Positions 2 to 8,809 of a DNA stretch of 64,000 nucleotides are shown here, in pieces. The DNA is from Legionella steelei. Lineage in GTDB: Bacteria > Pseudomonadota > Gammaproteobacteria > Legionellales > Legionellaceae. How positions within the stretch are numbered: the stretch's first letter is position 1; each line of letters opens with the position of its first letter. The stretch is taken from positions 963,688-1,027,687 of the forward strand of contig NZ_LNYY01000019.1 in NCBI RefSeq assembly GCF_001468005.1. The letters are read 5' to 3'. The translations under genes were made by a program, and so were the position numbers. The notes beneath the pieces were generated by a model. The model saw nothing but the letters and a program-made list of their open reading frames with translations. It did not search any database and was not told the DNA's origin.

Positions 2-724
2 CAGGCTGAATTGGATCTCGCTCGTACTAAATATAATTTTTCTCTACGCACTAAAAAGCGCCAGACGGATCTCGCAGCAAAACATTTCGCCTCCTTATCT
101 AGTTTAGATGAGGCGAATGAAGGCGCCGAACTTGCGGCGCAACAGATAGTTACTTCAGAGCATAATCTGCAGGGCCTGGCAGCATCTCTTGCGGGTAGTA
201 TTGATGAGCCTGTAGAGAACCATCCATCTTATTTAATAGCAAAAGCAGAATACGAGCAAGCCAAACTGGATTTGCAGCGTACTGAAATTAAAGCCCCGGT
301 CTCTGGAACCATTAGCACGCCTCCCAAACTAGGACAATTCGTCACTAAAGGTTCCATCAGTATGACTTTAGTCGCTAATGAACATCCTTGGATTGAAGCA
401 AACTTTACTGAAAAAGAGTTAACCTATGTGTATCCAGGGCAAAAAGTCATTACGACCATTGATATTTATCCTGGCAAAAAATGGAAAGGTACGGTCCAAA
501 GTTTAAGCCCAGCAACCGGTTCAGAGTTTTCAATTATCCCAGCTCAAAATGCGACAGGAAACTGGGTTAAAATTGCTCAGCGTATTGCAGTACGCATCCA
601 ATTGGAGGCAGATCCTAACAGTCCGCCACTTCGTTCTGGACTGAGCTCCTGGGTGGAAATTGATACAGGACATAAAAGATATTCGTTTAAAAACGCTCCT
701 CTTCCTAAAGTAGGGCAAGGTTAG
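2..724 (+). CDS. HlyD/EmrA-type membrane fusion protein, C-terminal part (5' truncated)
   Basis: The reading frame is open from the left edge, so the true start lies outside the window. The visible 241 residues start in an alpha-helical hairpin, followed by a lipoyl/barrel-sandwich half containing LQRTEIKAPVSGTI, then a beta-barrel region ending in WVEIDTGHK. This is the periplasmic adaptor of tripartite efflux pumps: it sits on the inner membrane and links an exporter to an outer-membrane channel. The next gene on the same strand is a 14-helix MFS exporter, so the pair looks like EmrA-EmrB. The N-terminal membrane anchor is not visible. The substrate is unknown, although Emr systems usually handle hydrophobic drugs. 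Confidence 0.9.
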   Translation, partial: QAELDLARTKYNFSLRTKKRQTDLAAKHFASLSSLDEANEGAELAAQQIVTSEHNLQGLAASLAGSIDEPVENHPSYLIAKAEYEQAKLDLQRTEIKAPVSGTISTPPKLGQFVTKGSISMTLVANEHPWIEANFTEKELTYVYPGQKVITTIDIYPGKKWKGTVQSLSPATGSEFSIIPAQNATGNWVKIAQRIAVRIQLEADPNSPPLRSGLSSWVEIDTGHKRYSFKNAPLPKVGQG

Positions 725-730
725 AACCTT

Positions 731-821
731 TGTAGCCTGGGTGTAGCGCAGCGTAACCCGGGATTATGAAACTCATTTACATGTAGAAACCCGAGTTACG
801 CTGCGCTACACCCAAGCTACA
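731..821. repeat. dispersed palindromic element, copy 1
   Basis: The element starts TGTAGCCTGGGTGTAGCGCA and ends in its imperfect reverse complement, TGCGCTACACCCAAGCTACA. The two arms flank a short spacer, so a transcript would fold into a long hairpin. It fills almost the whole gap between the fusion protein and the MFS exporter, so it would lie inside their probable mRNA. Related copies occur throughout the window. Confidence 0.85.
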
Positions 822-837
822 TTTTATCGATAAACTG

Positions 838-2388
838 ATGAGCTCTATGGCAGAAACATATCAAGCGCCCCCAGGGTCACAAAGAGTATTTATTACATTA
901 TCCGTCATGCTTGCAACCGTAATGCAATCATTGGATACAACCATTGCTAATGTGGCCTTACCTCATATGCAAGGTGGGATGGGAGCAACTCAAGAGCAAA
1001 TTTCTTGGGTTCTTACCTCGTACATTGTTGCAGCAGCCATCTTCACCCCTTTAACTGGTTTTTTGGGAGACCGCTTTGGAAGAAAACGAATTTTTATTTG
1101 GTCAGTAATTGGCTTTACTATTGCTTCCATGCTTTGTGGCGCTGCTCAAAATTTGTCGGAAATTGTATTATTTCGCCTACTCCAAGGCATTTGTGGTGCC
1201 AGTCTGGTTCCCATATCCCAATCCATACTTTTAGACTCTAACCCTCCAGAAAAGCAAGGCTCGGCTATGGCGATTTGGGGTATGGGGGTCATGGTTGGCC
1301 CAATTCTTGGTCCGTCTCTTGGTGGATGGCTTACTGAATATTACAACTGGCGTTGGGTTTTTTATATTAACCTACCCTTTGGAATACTTGCCTGGATCGG
1401 TTTAACCATGTTTCTTCAGGAAAATAAATTAAAAACCGAAAAACATTTTGACTTAATGGGATTTGCATTTTTAAGTATCGCAATAGGTTCATTACAGCTT
1501 TTTCTTGACCGAGGAGAGTCACTGGATTGGCTTAATAGCAATGAAATCATCATTGAAGGATTCGTTGCGCTTATCTGCTTGTATTTGTTTATTGTTCATA
1601 TCCTCACTTCCAAGACCCCTTTTATCGATCCAATTATGTTTAAAGATCGTAATTTTAGTGTCGGGCTTACATTTATTTTTATTATTGGGATTATTTTGCT
1701 GGCAACGATGGCGCTACTCCCGCCATACATGCAAGGTTTAATGAATTATCCAGTCATTGACGTTGGACTACTCTTAGCTCCTAGAGGAGTAGGCACTATG
1801 ACTGCGATGATGATTGTGGGCCGATTATCAGGAAAAATTGATGCACGTTATCAAATTGGTTTGGGATTAATTTTAACTGATTACTCCCTATGGCTAATGA
1901 CCTTATTCAATACGGACATCAGCAGCAGCGACATCATTTCCTCAGGAATCATTCAAGGACTAGGTTTGGGCTTCATTTTTGTTCCCTTATCTACACTCTC
2001 CTTTGCCTCGCTGCCATCACAGTATCGTAACGACGGTACTTCTTTATTTAGCCTACTCAGAAATATCGGGAGCAGTATTGGTATTTCCATTGTCATGACC
2101 AAGTTAGCGCAAAATACACAAGCAAATCATTCAGCGTTTTCCCATTTTATTACTCCATTTAACATCAGCTTAAATCATGCAAATGAATCAGGAGTTTTTA
2201 ATCTACAATCAACACAGGGGCTCGCTATTCTTGATGCAACAGTGAACAAGCAAGCTGTGTTACTGGCTTACTTACAAGATTTTCGCTTCATGATGTGGTT
2301 GGTATTATGTGCGTTCCCTCTTTTGTTTTTACTTAAACCCCCATCCAAAAAAGCTACTACTTCTCAATTATCTGAATTTGAAATATGA
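838..2388 (+). CDS. EmrB/QacA-type MFS multidrug exporter (DHA2 family)
   Basis: This is a 516-residue polytopic inner-membrane protein with about 14 hydrophobic segments, typical of DHA2 drug:proton antiporters. Visible signatures are LDTTIANVALP in the first helix (motif D1), LGDRFGRKRIF after helix 2 (motif A), and a glycine/proline-rich helix 5 around GVMVGPILGPSLGGWL (motif C, antiporter). It follows the EmrA-like adaptor and would export substrates through the adaptor and a TolC-type channel encoded elsewhere. There is no clear ribosome binding site before the ATG at 838, and ATG at 847 is an alternative start. The palindromic element ends only 16 bases upstream. Confidence 0.92.
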   Translation: MSSMAETYQAPPGSQRVFITLSVMLATVMQSLDTTIANVALPHMQGGMGATQEQISWVLTSYIVAAAIFTPLTGFLGDRFGRKRIFIWSVIGFTIASMLCGAAQNLSEIVLFRLLQGICGASLVPISQSILLDSNPPEKQGSAMAIWGMGVMVGPILGPSLGGWLTEYYNWRWVFYINLPFGILAWIGLTMFLQENKLKTEKHFDLMGFAFLSIAIGSLQLFLDRGESLDWLNSNEIIIEGFVALICLYLFIVHILTSKTPFIDPIMFKDRNFSVGLTFIFIIGIILLATMALLPPYMQGLMNYPVIDVGLLLAPRGVGTMTAMMIVGRLSGKIDARYQIGLGLILTDYSLWLMTLFNTDISSSDIISSGIIQGLGLGFIFVPLSTLSFASLPSQYRNDGTSLFSLLRNIGSSIGISIVMTKLAQNTQANHSAFSHFITPFNISLNHANESGVFNLQSTQGLAILDATVNKQAVLLAYLQDFRFMMWLVLCAFPLLFLLKPPSKKATTSQLSEFEI

Positions 2389-4436: not shown

Positions 4437-4517
4437 GCAACGTATTCTGGCTGTTTGCAGCCAGGATCCAATAAATGCATTTCTTGAAATCCTGGTTGCC
4501 TGCAATCAGGTTACAAC
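4437..4517. repeat. degenerate palindromic element between convergent genes
   Basis: The stretch has inverted blocks (TTCTGGCTG...CAGCCAGGATCC and ATCCTGGTTGCC...AATCAGGTTACAA). Its outer end, read on the minus strand as TTGTAACCTGATTGCAGG, resembles the TGTAGCCTGGGTGCAGC end of the dispersed family. It lies between the converging panC and NRPS-like genes and overlaps the last codons of the latter. It could instead act as a bidirectional terminator. Confidence 0.4.
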
Positions 4518-7500
4518 AACTCGGGAATTGCTTCGCCTGAAACGCCTTCAGTAACCGCAGGTTGTCGAGCAACTTGCTGATGTTGGGTTCCAAGAGCAGT
4601 CGATTGAGCGGGAATTCCCGACCAATGGGTATTTTCAGGTAAACGCTCACCTTTCATCAATAAAGAAAGGCTGCCGAGAGAAGAGTTTTCTTCCATTAGC
4701 GTATTGTAGAGAACAATTGAACCAACCCCTACATTACAACCCGAACCAATAGTCACATTAGAGACTTTAAATATTCTATCTTCATAAAGGTGAGTTTGAA
4801 TGATTGTCTCAGCGTTAATGCATACATCATTGCCTATCGTAATTAAATCAAACTCTGAAAACTCAGCACTGTCTGTGAAAATCCTTTTACCGGCTTTAGT
4901 TCCTAAACAACGATGTATCCAAAGTGCAAAAGGAGTTCCTAAAACTTTGTTCGTTAAATGCGGGTTCGTATAATAGTTATATGAATACTCAATAACATCA
5001 TTTTTCCAAATAAAAGGATCCCAAATAGCCTTGGTTAAAGGTTTTAATTTACCGAGCATAAGCCATTTAAGCGCGACCAATACACCAACAAGGCAGACTG
5101 TAAAGAACATTTCAGCTGGAGGTAAAACCAGAGCTGTAGTAAGCCAAGAGTATTCGCTTAACATATAATCTAAAACATAAAGCATATTGAATAACGCAAT
5201 CAATGAGAATGTTGATGGTAAAATAATTCGTATAAACTCAATAGCTAGACGCATACGATAGAGTTTTTTAGAGGGATAAAACGTATCCTTATCAGAAAAA
5301 CCAACAAATAACTCTCGCTTTGGCAGAAAGACTGCCGGCGAACCCAACCAAGCAGAATGAGGCTCCTTTGCTTTGTCTCCTGGTGGCGTCACAGATAAAC
5401 ATCCTAATAAGGCACCTTCTCCCATCGACTTACCTGAAGACAATAAACTTACATTACCTACGAAAGCTCTTCGTCCAACAGTTACTGGAGCAAAAGAAAT
5501 AAAACCATTGCAAACGCTAGGCCAAGCTAAAGCGACGGAACTGGCGGTAAATCCACCTTCTTCAATAGTTACTAGGTCAGGAATAATATGGGGGGTTTCT
5601 CCCATCTCGACCCCTTTGCCTAGCTTTGCACCAAGTAAGCGTAAGAACATAGGTAAATACAAGGTGTCCGCCATTACTGAAATTTCATCACCATCCAATA
5701 ATTTCACCATGATCCAGTGGCGGAAATAATAAAAGCTCTTTAAGGGATATTCGCCAGGTTTTATCTTATCCATAATGATCTTTTTACAGATCACTATGCA
5801 TAAATAGTATAGTACTAAGAAGAGTATTGCCCCTAAAGGTATTGCAAAAAACATCGTAGTAAAATAATGGCTTTGATCGTAGTAATAACTGATCAAAGAG
5901 ATGGAAGGAATTAAGCATAGGTAATACACTACCATCACAAAAACGACGCCTAAATAATGCAAAATACCGAAAAGAGTATTTTCCAACATAGTAGACTCTT
6001 CTACCGCAATCTTTTTCCGGGTTATGTGGTCAACCGGAGCCATACCAGGCAATGCAGGAGAACCAGAAAAATAAGCCCCTTGAGGAATTAAACCTTGATC
6101 GTGAAGCATGGACATGTCATCCAAAATCCCATTATCTTCGATCTGTGTATTTAAACCCACAACCGCACGTGAGCCTACAAAACAATTATTGCCTATGTTG
6201 ATAGTACCTATTTTTAACCAGCCATCTTCAACTATATAGCCGTTAAGTCTACAGTCGGCCCCTATAGAAGTATTATCTCCTATAGTTAACAAATCATGAG
6301 CAGAAACCTGCATAGAGCCCAAATGGCAGTTCTTCCCTATTTTGGCTCCTAATAATCGATAATATATAGCTGCTAATGGGGAACCAACCAAAAATTTACC
6401 TAAAAACAAATTCTTAAGCAGCCTTTGTACTAGCCACCAGCGAAAATAAAACCACCCCCAAAGCGGGTATTCACCTGGTTTCACTCGCCCAAGTAATATC
6501 CACTTCAAACAGATCGTAATAAATAACGAAATGATGGGCATAGATAAAAACAAGGCTAAAAATGCAAGCTGTGACTCTCTGGAAATAATTGAATACTCAG
6601 AGCTCACCCAGCTATAACACAAAATAACGGCCAATAGTTGTAAGGTACCTACTGCATATTGCAACAAGCATCCAAAAAATTGACCAACACCACACAAATA
6701 ATACTTCCACTGCGGTGCTCTATATTTTTTCTTGGCCGCTTGTTCTTCGCTTACTTGTGGATTGGCATTAGGGTCATTAAATTTCTGCTCTAACTGGCCA
6801 ATTGTTGGATTTTTATACAAATCAAGAATTGAGATATTCTTTAACGCAGGTATTTTGCGTAAGTTAGAAATCACTTTAGCCGCATGTAACGAGTGCCCAC
6901 CTAAATCATAAAAAAAGTCTGCAGTTACAGAAATATTGATACAATCAAACACCTTTTCCCAGACATGAGCAATTTCTCGAGCAAGTTCAGACTCAGGTGC
7001 TTTATAAATACTGTCTATCTTTTGCTGTGCCGGTTTGGGCAACTTTTTTCGGTTTACTTTGCCGCTCGCTAACACAGGAAAATTGTCTATAATTTCAATT
7101 AATGCAGGTAGCATATAATCAGGTAGGCGCGCTCTTAAAAAGATTTTAAGTTCATTTGCATCCAGCACATGATTGTTATCAAGGAGCACATAAGCAACAA
7201 GGGTAGGTTGTTCCAATTCTTGTAAAGAAACTACCGCTTGCTTAATTCCAGCATATTGCATGATCACGGTTTCAATTTCGTTTAGTTCAATACGAAATCC
7301 ACGTAATTTTATTTGATCATCCACTCGCCCTGCAAAACGCAGGTTCCCATTAGGCGCTTTGGAAACCAAATCACCTGTGCGATATAAACGTTGATTGTTG
7401 TTTGCTGGATTGAGGACAAATTTTTCCGCCGTACTCTCGGGACGATTGACGTAACCACGCGCCAAAGCAATCCCTGCAATACACAACTCACCCTCCTCAC

Positions 7501-8512
7501 CATCCGCCACTTCTCGCAATTGTTCATCCACAATCAGTACTTCATAACCTGGTAAAGGTTGTCCAATAGTGATTTCTTTGTCGGAATGACATTCTGCATA
7601 AGTCGCGATGATCGTTGCTTCAGTAGGACCATACGTGTTGACTATCCTTAGACCGTCTCTACTCCAACGTGCGACTAACGTAGCCGGGCAGGTTTCTCCG
7701 CCCAAAATTAAAAGACGCAAATCAGGCAATTGTCCCTCTAACGTAGACAATAGAGTAGGCACTGTTGAAAAAACACTAACACGGTGTTGTTGTAAAAAAG
7801 AAATTAAACCTAAGCCTGAACGGATTTCTTTTGTCGTACACGCAATAAGAGCAGCACCATTAGCAAAAGCCATCCAAAACTCTTCTAAAGAAGCATCAAA
7901 TGCTAAAGAAAATCCTTGATATACTCTATCATTACTGGTTATATCGTAAAGTGTGCTCGCAACGTCTACATAGTGACAAATGCTACGATGCGTAATTTCC
8001 ACTCCCTTAGGTTTTCCTGTTGAACCTGAAGTGTAGATGATGTAACACAAATCATCGGGATTCAAATCATCTTGAATCAACCTTTGTGCAGGGCGTTTAG
8101 AAATTTCGTCAGCAAGCGCATCAACTCTATAAGTAGTAGGCCATGTCAGATTTTTTTGGGCTTGCACGGAAGACGTTAAAACTGCATTGAAAGGCAAATC
8201 AGAAAAAATGTGGTTAATACGCTCATCAGGATAATCCACTTCAATAGGTACATAAGCAGCACCTGTTTTCAAAGTAGCGAGTATTGCAACATAGCATTCT
8301 ACAGAGCGTTCTAATAGAATACCAACAATACTTCCTTTGGATATTTTGTTCTCGGAAAGGAAATGAGCTAATTGATTTGCGCGATGTTCTAATTCTTGAT
8401 AAGAAATAAAAGCGTTATCACAAATCAATGCGATGTTGCTTGAGTAATTATCAACTGTTTTTTCAAAAAAATGATGCAATTGCATAGTGTTATAACCGGG
8501 TGAAAAACTCAA
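4511..8512 (-). CDS. NRPS-like membrane synthetase of Pls/PosA type (A-T-six TM-three LbH domains)
   Basis: The protein has 1,333 residues in order: an adenylation domain (about 1-500; YTSGSTGKPKG 160-170, NTYGPTEAT 292-300, YRTGD 377-381, GKVNRKKLP with K485); a carrier domain with phosphopantetheine Ser541 in DLGGHSL; then three repeats of two membrane segments plus a left-handed beta-helix (hexapeptide) domain (membrane pairs near 605-675, 850-920 and 1095-1165). There is no condensation or thioesterase domain. This matches the layout and size of streptomycete epsilon-poly-L-lysine synthetase. Hand alignment to GrsA gives specificity residues D206 A207 E210 S249 I269 G271 T293 I301 I302 K485, close to lysine-type codes. 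The TTG start at 8512 is supported by GGAG nine bases upstream; ATG at 8485 is an alternative without a good site. The product is unproven. Confidence 0.85.
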   Translation of the reverse strand: MSFSPGYNTMQLHHFFEKTVDNYSSNIALICDNAFISYQELEHRANQLAHFLSENKISKGSIVGILLERSVECYVAILATLKTGAAYVPIEVDYPDERINHIFSDLPFNAVLTSSVQAQKNLTWPTTYRVDALADEISKRPAQRLIQDDLNPDDLCYIIYTSGSTGKPKGVEITHRSICHYVDVASTLYDITSNDRVYQGFSLAFDASLEEFWMAFANGAALIACTTKEIRSGLGLISFLQQHRVSVFSTVPTLLSTLEGQLPDLRLLILGGETCPATLVARWSRDGLRIVNTYGPTEATIIATYAECHSDKEITIGQPLPGYEVLIVDEQLREVADGEEGELCIAGIALARGYVNRPESTAEKFVLNPANNNQRLYRTGDLVSKAPNGNLRFAGRVDDQIKLRGFRIELNEIETVIMQYAGIKQAVVSLQELEQPTLVAYVLLDNNHVLDANELKIFLRARLPDYMLPALIEIIDNFPVLASGKVNRKKLPKPAQQKIDSIYKAPESELAREIAHVWEKVFDCINISVTADFFYDLGGHSLHAAKVISNLRKIPALKNISILDLYKNPTIGQLEQKFNDPNANPQVSEEQAAKKKYRAPQWKYYLCGVGQFFGCLLQYAVGTLQLLAVILCYSWVSSEYSIISRESQLAFLALFLSMPIISLFITICLKWILLGRVKPGEYPLWGWFYFRWWLVQRLLKNLFLGKFLVGSPLAAIYYRLLGAKIGKNCHLGSMQVSAHDLLTIGDNTSIGADCRLNGYIVEDGWLKIGTINIGNNCFVGSRAVVGLNTQIEDNGILDDMSMLHDQGLIPQGAYFSGSPALPGMAPVDHITRKKIAVEESTMLENTLFGILHYLGVVFVMVVYYLCLIPSISLISYYYDQSHYFTTMFFAIPLGAILFLVLYYLCIVICKKIIMDKIKPGEYPLKSFYYFRHWIMVKLLDGDEISVMADTLYLPMFLRLLGAKLGKGVEMGETPHIIPDLVTIEEGGFTASSVALAWPSVCNGFISFAPVTVGRRAFVGNVSLLSSGKSMGEGALLGCLSVTPPGDKAKEPHSAWLGSPAVFLPKRELFVGFSDKDTFYPSKKLYRMRLAIEFIRIILPSTFSLIALFNMLYVLDYMLSEYSWLTTALVLPPAEMFFTVCLVGVLVALKWLMLGKLKPLTKAIWDPFIWKNDVIEYSYNYYTNPHLTNKVLGTPFALWIHRCLGTKAGKRIFTDSAEFSEFDLITIGNDVCINAETIIQTHLYEDRIFKVSNVTIGSGCNVGVGSIVLYNTLMEENSSLGSLSLLMKGERLPENTHWSGIPAQSTALGTQHQQVARQPAVTEGVSGEAIPELL

Positions 8513-8809
8513 ATTGGTTGACTCCTACTAATTGCGCTATTTTTCCACAGTTTAATTGATTTAATTGCTTATTTTTAACAAAAAAAGCGAGCAAGAGCGT
8601 TTATTCTCAATATATTATATTTAGCATCAATAGTAAAAGGCTTATGGAAAAAAACACAGAAGTAAGACTATAATTTTGGGGATTATAATTGTTTGTCGAA
8701 TTACAATCGAGCCTATTGAAATAATTTTTTTCAATATTTATTTTCAATGCTACTAGGGCCTGTTTACAGACCCTAATCTAGTCCTCTCTCGACTAAGAAG
8801 AACAACTCA
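8513..8809. other. AT-rich intergenic region upstream of the NRPS-like gene
   Basis: Nothing coding is recognised in about 297 bases. Inverted repeats are visible: TATAAT...ATTATA near 8671-8689, ATTGAAA...TTTTTCAAT near 8716-8738, and TAGGG-CTGTTTACAG-CCCTA near 8756-8776. The last has a partial relative at about 52826-52839. This region must contain the promoter of the NRPS-like gene and the 3' end of the hydrolase transcript, but no -35/-10 pair stands out. Confidence 0.4.

What the first reader, a model, noticed from the sequence alone, without database searches (positions are those of the whole stretch)
4511..8512. Poly-lysine-synthetase-like NRPS in a Legionella, with a lysine-type specificity code
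The protein has exactly the layout described for streptomycete epsilon-poly-L-lysine synthetase: adenylation domain, carrier domain, then six membrane segments interleaved with three related soluble (hexapeptide beta-helix) domains, in 1,333 residues and with no condensation or thioesterase domain. Hand alignment to GrsA gives the code D-A-E-S-I-G-T-I-I-K; the Lys code I remember is D-A-E-S-I-G-S-V-x-K. If right, this Legionella could make a cationic isopeptide homopolymer (poly-lysine or a related diamino-acid polymer), which to my knowledge is not described for the genus. The gene stands alone, without an adjacent degrading enzyme or exporter, so the membrane part may also release the product.
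Basis: partly seen in the sequence, partly recalled or inferred. Interest (0 to 1): 0.82.

Follow-up and report, generated by a model that had tools for sequence, protein, structure and literature searches.

The report
Lysine-polymer synthetase widespread in Legionella
This Legionella gene encodes a membrane-bound enzyme of the known poly-lysine/poly-ornithine synthetase family, with a pocket that looks built for lysine, and most sampled genomes of its genus carry it, although what it makes has not been shown here.

Summary
Window 8512-4511 (minus strand) encodes a 1,333-residue protein: adenylation domain, carrier domain, and a membrane domain that passes NCBIfam's Pls/PosA model (553 bits, cut-off 423). 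Three helix pairs, three related beta-helix domains and no condensation or thioesterase domain were confirmed, as was the code DAESIGTIIK, with controls. All 31 Legionellaceae rows read DAES[IV]GT[IV][IV]K; six actinobacterial homologues read DAESIGTVVK. The family is known, so this is a new member of a known kind. Found here: it is over cut-off in 32 of 45 genomes of the genus, under strong purifying selection, and near the same hydrolase gene in 19 of 27 named loci. Its polymerisation domain lies apart from the Pls-code and PosA groups. H1241, in the third beta-helix, is the domain's only invariant histidine in 25 chosen members. Best reading: a stand-alone maker of an isopeptide-linked cationic homopolymer, probably epsilon-poly-L-lysine. 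Substrate and product are predicted, not shown; both trees put it nearest Dab/Dap-coded relatives, which leaves another diamino acid possible.

The parts
4511..8512 (-). whole synthetase gene, 1,333 codons plus stop, TTG start
   Evidence: AGGAG nine bases before the TTG
8522..8526 (-). Shine-Dalgarno-like AGGAG before the TTG start
   Evidence: read from sequence
7031..8482 (-). adenylation domain, about res 11-494
   Evidence: TIGR01733 and PF00501/PF13193, ends from phmmer matches; motifs YTSGSTGKPKG 160, NTYGPTE 292, YRTGDL 377
7058..7897 (-). stretch holding the ten code residues (D206 to K485), DAESIGTIIK
6785..6970 (-). carrier (PCP) domain res 515-576; phosphopantetheine Ser541 in LGGHS
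   Evidence: PF00550; S541 invariant in 25 rows
4607..6664 (-). Pls/PosA terminal (polymerisation) domain, res 617-1302
   Evidence: TIGR02353, 553 bits, cut-off 423
6479..6679 (-). membrane helix pair 1 (res 612-678)
   Evidence: hydropathy, model
6020..6343 (-). beta-helix domain C1 (about res 724-831)
   Evidence: model secondary structure; Hexapep PF00132
5768..5986 (-). membrane helix pair 2 (res 843-915)
5312..5626 (-). beta-helix domain C2 (about res 963-1067)
5042..5248 (-). membrane helix pair 3 (res 1089-1157)
4580..4897 (-). beta-helix domain C3 (about res 1206-1311)
4790..4792 (-). His1241 in THLYED, candidate catalytic base
   Evidence: H in 25 of 25 chosen members, the only invariant His of the domain

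Best explanation
A self-contained synthetase of a cationic, isopeptide-linked homopolymer, most likely epsilon-poly-L-lysine. The A domain adenylates a basic diamino acid (probably L-lysine) and loads it on Ser541 of the carrier domain, once the genome's one detected PPTase has added the phosphopantetheine arm. The membrane-held C-terminal domain, three left-handed beta-helices fused in one chain, lets the side-chain amine of a free lysine or growing chain attack the lysyl thioester, again and again, without condensation or thioesterase domains. His1241 of the third beta-helix is the best candidate for the base, so there may be one working site with C1 and C2 as needed scaffold. Shown here: domains, code, conservation, predicted fold. 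Inferred: lysine, polymer, role of His1241 (about even odds), way of release.
For: Terminal domain and A domain over curated cut-offs. Code DAESIGTIIK: Asp at 1 and Glu at 3, which PMC10522769 finds conserved in these synthetases, and Ala at 2, which it ties to lysine. The pattern DAES[IV]GT[IV][IV]K holds in 31 of 31 Legionellaceae rows (at least one genome, L045 = L062, is in twice); 6 actinobacterial homologues read DAESIGTVVK, two beside an M1 metallopeptidase gene. The bacitracin lysine module reads DAESIGSV: 6 of 8 the same. K485 and S541 intact and invariant in 25 rows. dN/dS 0.064-0.098 for A+PCP in 8 pairs and 0.031-0.057 for the CTD in 7 of 8 (the eighth saturated). One PF01648 hit in the genome, as reported for the genus (PMC5126622, abstract). 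PMC4668381 (passages) describes the same order of steps for Pls. CTD model: partial matches to beta-helix acyltransferases and gamma-carbonic anhydrases (best E 9.2e-05).
Against: The lineage is not that of the actinobacterial DAES proteins: CTD joint clade rejected, p-AU 0.0032. Both trees put it nearest DFE-coded (Dab/Dap-type) rows: the A domain beside all seven (95/89), the CTD on the same side of a 100/99 branch as three of them, on a long branch. The A-domain joint clade with actinobacterial DAES is not rejected (p-AU 0.12). Positions 8-9 are mostly VI, II or IV, not VV. S. albulus Pls itself was not in the trees. [quoted passage not shown] the mutational paper itself is not held. Broken copies in two genomes and no copy in 12 of 45 show that it is dispensable.
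Confidence: 0.65

Rival explanations
1. Same kind of enzyme, other diamino acid: the polymer is of ornithine, 2,4-diaminobutyrate, 2,3-diaminopropionate or beta-lysine.
For: A-domain tree without code columns puts the Legionellaceae rows beside the DFE (Dab/Dap-type) group, 95/89; in the CTD tree three DFE-coded rows lie on their side of the 100/99 branch. Related A domains take several diamino acids (PMC10522769).
Against: Position 2 is Ala in 31 of 31 Legionellaceae rows, not Phe (Dab/Dap) or Met (Orn), and positions 4-6 are S-[IV]-G, as in the bacitracin lysine module. The two flanking genes are panC and a hydrolase, not diamino-acid biosynthesis; in L081, a DFE type, a diaminobutyrate transaminase gene follows.
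Confidence: 0.18
2. Not a homopolymer maker: the CTD hands one or a few lysyl groups to another acceptor (an envelope lipid, sugar or amine), as beta-helix acyltransferases hand on acyl groups.
For: The nearest solved folds are acyltransferases with other acceptors (CysE, maltose O-acetyltransferase, LpxD); the Legionellaceae CTD branches apart from the PosA and Pls-code groups (100/99).
Against: The CTD passes the Pls/PosA equivalog-domain cut-off by 130 bits and shares 17 residues, H1241 among them, that are invariant in 25 chosen rows. No constant partner gene was seen in the loci compared.
Confidence: 0.13
3. A decaying gene without function in this strain.
For: Broken copies exist in G021 and in L. 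longbeachae NCTC11477 (L056); 12 of 45 genomes of the genus show no copy (two of these under 90% complete).
Against: This copy is full length with the core motifs; dN/dS 0.03-0.10 against 8 relatives; 30 of the 32 over-cut-off genomes in the genus hold open frames of 1,322-1,371 codons.
Confidence: 0.04

Closest known systems
epsilon-poly-L-lysine synthetase Pls (Streptomyces albulus and kin)
   Same: A-PCP plus a six-helix, three-soluble-domain CTD; lysine-type code; no C or TE domain (layout from PMC10522769, introduction)
   Different: 29-31% identical to the six actinobacterial proteins with code DAESIGTVVK; CTD not in their group; no metallopeptidase gene beside it. S. albulus Pls itself was not compared.
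delta-poly-L-ornithine synthetase PosA (Acinetobacter baumannii)
   Same: gammaproteobacterial, same domains, single gene (PMC10522769); 33% identical; Asp 1 and Glu 3 of the code
   Different: code DMEHNGTVSK (Met at 2) against DAESIGTIIK; CTD groups with DLED and other DMEH types
Dab/Dap-type polymer synthetases (DFE codes)
   Same: same domains; nearest A domains in the tree without code columns
   Different: Phe at position 2; one of those fetched, L081, is followed by a diaminobutyrate transaminase gene
left-handed beta-helix acyltransferases (CysE, maltose O-acetyltransferase, LpxA/LpxD)
   Same: fold of the three soluble domains
   Different: those I know are homotrimers (recalled); here three unlike copies in one membrane chain, with the invariant His only in the third

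Membership tests
Pls/PosA family (cationic homopoly-amino-acid synthetases) | terminal domain over NCBIfam TIGR02353 cut-off | tested here: met
   553.4 bits, cut-off 423.1, res 617-1302
Pls/PosA family (cationic homopoly-amino-acid synthetases) | N-terminal A domain plus carrier domain with phosphopantetheine serine | tested here: met
   S541 and K485 invariant in 25 rows
Pls/PosA family (cationic homopoly-amino-acid synthetases) | six membrane helices in three pairs with three related soluble domains | tested here: met
   hydropathy and shuffles, model pLDDT 85.5
Pls/PosA family (cationic homopoly-amino-acid synthetases) | no condensation or thioesterase domain | tested here: met
   5 Pfam families at E up to 0.001, none of these; no HHxxxDG
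Pls/PosA family (cationic homopoly-amino-acid synthetases) | Asp at code position 1 and Glu at position 3 | tested here: met
   D206, E210; invariant in 25 chosen rows
Pls/PosA family (cationic homopoly-amino-acid synthetases) | makes an isopeptide homopolymer | not testable with these tools
   needs the enzyme
epsilon-poly-L-lysine synthetase (Pls) | lysine-type pocket with Ala at position 2 | tested here: met
   DAESIGTIIK; rule from PMC10522769
epsilon-poly-L-lysine synthetase (Pls) | same clade as actinobacterial Pls-code proteins | tested here: not met
   CTD joint clade rejected, p-AU 0.0032; A domain not rejected, p-AU 0.12. S. albulus Pls itself was not in the tree.
epsilon-poly-L-lysine synthetase (Pls) | activates L-lysine and makes epsilon-poly-L-lysine | not testable with these tools
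   needs the enzyme

The most novel reading that the evidence does not exclude
Legionellaceae hold a separate, deep lineage of isopeptide-polymer synthetase that reached lysine specificity independently of the actinobacterial enzymes (same pocket letters on a different A domain and polymerisation domain), and use a lysine polymer as a conserved tool in their life inside or against amoebae and other microbes.
Probability: 0.3. Interest if true: 0.65.

Novelty: new member of a known kind. Interest (0 to 1): 0.45.

Why it matters
By the abstract of PMC10522769, bacterial isopeptide cationic polymers were known only from actinomycetes before Acinetobacter PosA. A conserved, lysine-coded synthetase in most sampled genomes of Legionella would add a large group of likely producers. 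The separate lineage of its polymerisation domain and the single invariant histidine give a testable idea of how these condensation-free enzymes make bonds.

Tried and rejected
Considered and rejected: (a) an ordinary NRPS module or DltA-like ligase: of the 25 families shown (114 in all), only the general A-domain model and the Pls/PosA model are passed; DltA, EntF and the rest fall under their cut-offs. (b) A chance code match: 4 other A-domain-like ORFs of the genome give unrelated codes. (c) A unit with the EmrAB-type pump or panBC: panC lies near the gene in 15 of 27 named loci, the pump in 6; in L. santicrucis, L. gratiana and L. longbeachae neither is seen within the fetched flank. Pantothenate genes beside a carrier-protein enzyme are suggestive but not constant. 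(d) Recent import: GC 0.393 against 0.403 for the window, conserved flanks.

Led nowhere: getting the S. albulus Pls (7wew) letters from the structure search (it did not reach the rows shown as alignments); a family search for OpuAC in the own genome was a wrong accession and says nothing; promoter-like and terminator-like counts equal shuffles (13 against 13.5 and 4 against 3.6).

[quoted passage not shown] two rows of the code count (L045, L062) proved to be one genome (contig lengths).

Rows dropped before counts: of 53 aligned rows, 14 Legionellaceae rows (near-copies, one of a doubled genome, and the broken L056) were left out of the trees, giving 39; L093 (long branch) was then left out. 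Broken or partial loci L067, L068, L070, L076, L086, L087 are in the code table only (L067 and L086 are one place). The 25 rows for invariant residues were chosen by me for diversity (7 Legionellaceae, 18 others). C1, C2 and C3 positions were matched to each other by eye.
Full report
What is there. The open frame at 4511-8512 runs on the minus strand from a TTG at 8512, with AGGAG nine bases before it. It encodes 1,333 residues: an adenylation domain (TIGR01733, res 37-428), a carrier domain (PF00550, res 515-576) and a terminal domain that scores 553.4 bits against NCBIfam TIGR02353, 'Pls/PosA family non-ribosomal peptide synthetase', cut-off 423.1. Hydropathy finds six membrane segments in three pairs. 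The three soluble stretches are related (alignment scores 109, 189 and 75, none reached in 500 shuffles each; my cuts of C1 and C2 hold some membrane residues). HHxxxDG is absent, and one GxSxG-like string lies in the second beta-helix region. An AlphaFold model of residues 596-1333, from 24 aligned sequences, has pLDDT 85.5 and pTM 0.85 (the five models: 85.5, 85.4, 74.8, 62.2, 59.6) and shows three long helix pairs, each followed by a beta-helix. No solved structure was found that matches the domain as a whole: sequence search gives weak hits, best E 2e-05, mostly to hexapeptide-repeat proteins, and Foldseek gives partial matches to beta-helix acyltransferases and gamma-carbonic anhydrases (best E 9.2e-05; TM-score on the query at most 0.17 in the 50 rows shown).

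The code. By motif, the ten pocket residues are D206 A207 E210 S249 I269 G271 T293 I301 I302 K485, and their spacing equals that of the published PosA residues. The extraction returns the published DMEHNGTVSK for an A. baumannii PosA, and unrelated codes for 4 of the 19 other matching places of the same genome. The 31 Legionellaceae rows (30 genomes at most, since L045 and L062 are one) all read DAES[IV]GT[IV][IV]K. Of 8 further plasmid records fetched, 6 actinobacterial ones read DAESIGTVVK, one reads DSECYGGVTK and one DFEALGTVTK. The bacitracin lysine module is printed as DAESIGSV in PMC3207962 (passage seen), 6 of 8 the same as ours. PMC7179176 (passages seen) says that the pocket is conserved between bacterial Pls, a fungal epsilon-poly-lysine synthetase and that bacitracin module. 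PMC10522769 (abstract, passages, sections 4, 6, 8, 10, 12, 13, 14 read) ties Ala at position 2 to lysine, Met to ornithine and Phe to Dap/Dab, and finds Asp at 1 and Glu at 3 conserved. Lysine is therefore the best prediction, not a result.

Distribution and constraint. TIGR02353 is over its cut-off in 32 of 45 genomes of the genus (30 with open frames of 1,322-1,371 codons, one partial at a contig edge, one with a broken A domain); one more genome holds a broken copy. It is over cut-off in 45 of 143 genomes of the order and 8 of 369 of the class sample, three of them Legionellaceae. Of 14 control genomes only Corynebacterium glutamicum is over cut-off, though weak hits occur in 13, so only over-cut-off matches were counted. 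Named carriers include L. steigerwaltii (93% identical), L. anisa, L. bozemanae, L. gormanii, L. parisiensis, L. tucsonensis, L. wadsworthii and L. santicrucis. The same dienelactone-hydrolase-like gene lies within 4 kb in 19 of the 27 named loci and panC in 15; the 8 loci without either are from outside the genus or on short contigs. Of the 12 genomes of the genus without a copy, 11 had the hydrolase and panC on one contig and were fetched: in 3 they are about 50-160 bases apart, in the others there are further ORFs between them, the one scanned being a biotin carboxylase. Ten neighbours of five loci outside the genus show no common pathway, which fits a self-sufficient enzyme. dN/dS against 8 relatives is 0.064-0.098 for A+PCP; for the CTD it is 0.031-0.057 in 7 of 8 pairs, the eighth being saturated; dS is above 1 in most pairs, so the values are rough.

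Phylogeny. With 38 rows, the CTD tree has the Legionellaceae proteins as one clade (99/99). A 100/99 branch parts them from a group of 18 that holds the PosA-type, DLED-type, four DFE-type and the actinobacterial DAES-type proteins; three other DFE-coded rows, on a long branch, lie on the Legionellaceae side. Holding Legionellaceae and actinobacterial DAES rows together costs 36.6 log units, p-AU 0.0032. In the A-domain tree without the ten code columns, Legionellaceae falls beside the seven DFE rows (95/89), but the joint clade with actinobacterial DAES is not rejected (p-AU 0.12). So either the lysine pocket arose twice or an old pocket was kept in two distant lines; the data lean to the first for the CTD lineage and do not settle it for the A domain. 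The nearness of DFE rows in both trees is the main point against lysine. Caveats: the actinobacterial proteins are taken for Pls by code and, in two cases, by an M1 metallopeptidase neighbour (that Pls genes have a degrading peptidase nearby is recalled). S. albulus Pls was not available. Letter make-up differs between high- and low-GC rows.

Mechanism. In 25 chosen members the terminal domain keeps 17 invariant residues; the only histidine among them is H1241, in THLYED of the third beta-helix. At the places that match it by eye, C1 and C2 have no conserved histidine (only scattered single H letters in nearby columns). Beta-helix acyltransferases of the matched kinds commonly use a histidine base (recalled). 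I infer that the chain forms a pseudo-trimer whose working site is at H1241, where the side-chain amine of lysine or of the chain attacks the lysyl thioester on Ser541. [quoted passage not shown] C1 and C2 may be needed as scaffold, or as sites. The mutational paper it cites is not held, so I cannot say whether this residue is already named. The carrier arm would come from the genome's single PF01648 hit; PMC5126622 (abstract, section 17 and passages read) reports one Sfp-type PPTase in each Legionella genome that it analysed.

Literature. Searches for Legionella with poly-lysine synthetase (0 papers), poly-L-lysine and NRPS (0), epsilon-poly-L-lysine (13, none about such a synthetase by title and abstract start), 'PosA family' (0) and Legionella NRPS genome mining (37, 20 listed) showed no description of this enzyme in the genus. 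PMC5126622 has no word that begins with 'lysine' in its main text. Its cluster tables were not readable and may list the gene; its 'cluster F' (A, T and C domain, most prevalent) could be this gene or another, I cannot tell. PMC10522769 does not name Legionella in its main text, but its Supplementary Table 2 may.

Verdict. It is a new member of a known family, widespread and conserved in Legionella, with a lysine-type pocket on a separate lineage of the polymerisation domain. The product is a prediction.

Noticed in passing
L. longbeachae NCTC11477 (L056 7986-12006); G021 (L108): Copies of the synthetase gene whose reading frame is broken, in the A domain in the first; in the second the match falls in several frames. 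Intact copies exist in many relatives.
   Followed up: partly
window 11-2388: EmrA/EmrB-type efflux pair (TIGR00711, 450 bits for the permease) before panBC; seen beside panBC in 6 of 27 named loci.
   Followed up: partly
L099, L101-L105; L051 6292-7716: In six genomes without the synthetase an ORF of 479-509 codons lies between the hydrolase and panC; the one scanned (L103) is a biotin carboxylase subunit, and L. maioricensis (L051) has such a gene beside the synthetase.
   Followed up: partly
L102 2277-2375 (G024): A 36-residue match (50%, E 4e-04) to the last residues of the synthetase in a genome without the gene, in the gap where it would lie: perhaps a relic, perhaps chance.
   Followed up: no
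own genome, C19 227276-229006, 736201-737796; C16 57295-58794: Other A-domain ORFs of the genome with codes DMTKIGEVAK, DLTKVGEVGK and DIWHFSLIDK.
   Followed up: no
L067 7980-11930 (Coxiellaceae MAG SSA3), same place as L086: A homologue about 44% identical in its first piece, with code DAESIGTVVK, split by a stop into two open pieces.
   Followed up: no
L074: A Sphingomonas plasmid carries a Pls/PosA gene with code DMEHNGTVTK next to a phosphopantetheinyl transferase gene.
   Followed up: no
L093: A Streptomyces plasmid homologue has the code DSECYGGVTK, the same as the Bdellovibrionales A domain that showed modest activity with arginine in PMC10522769.
   Followed up: no
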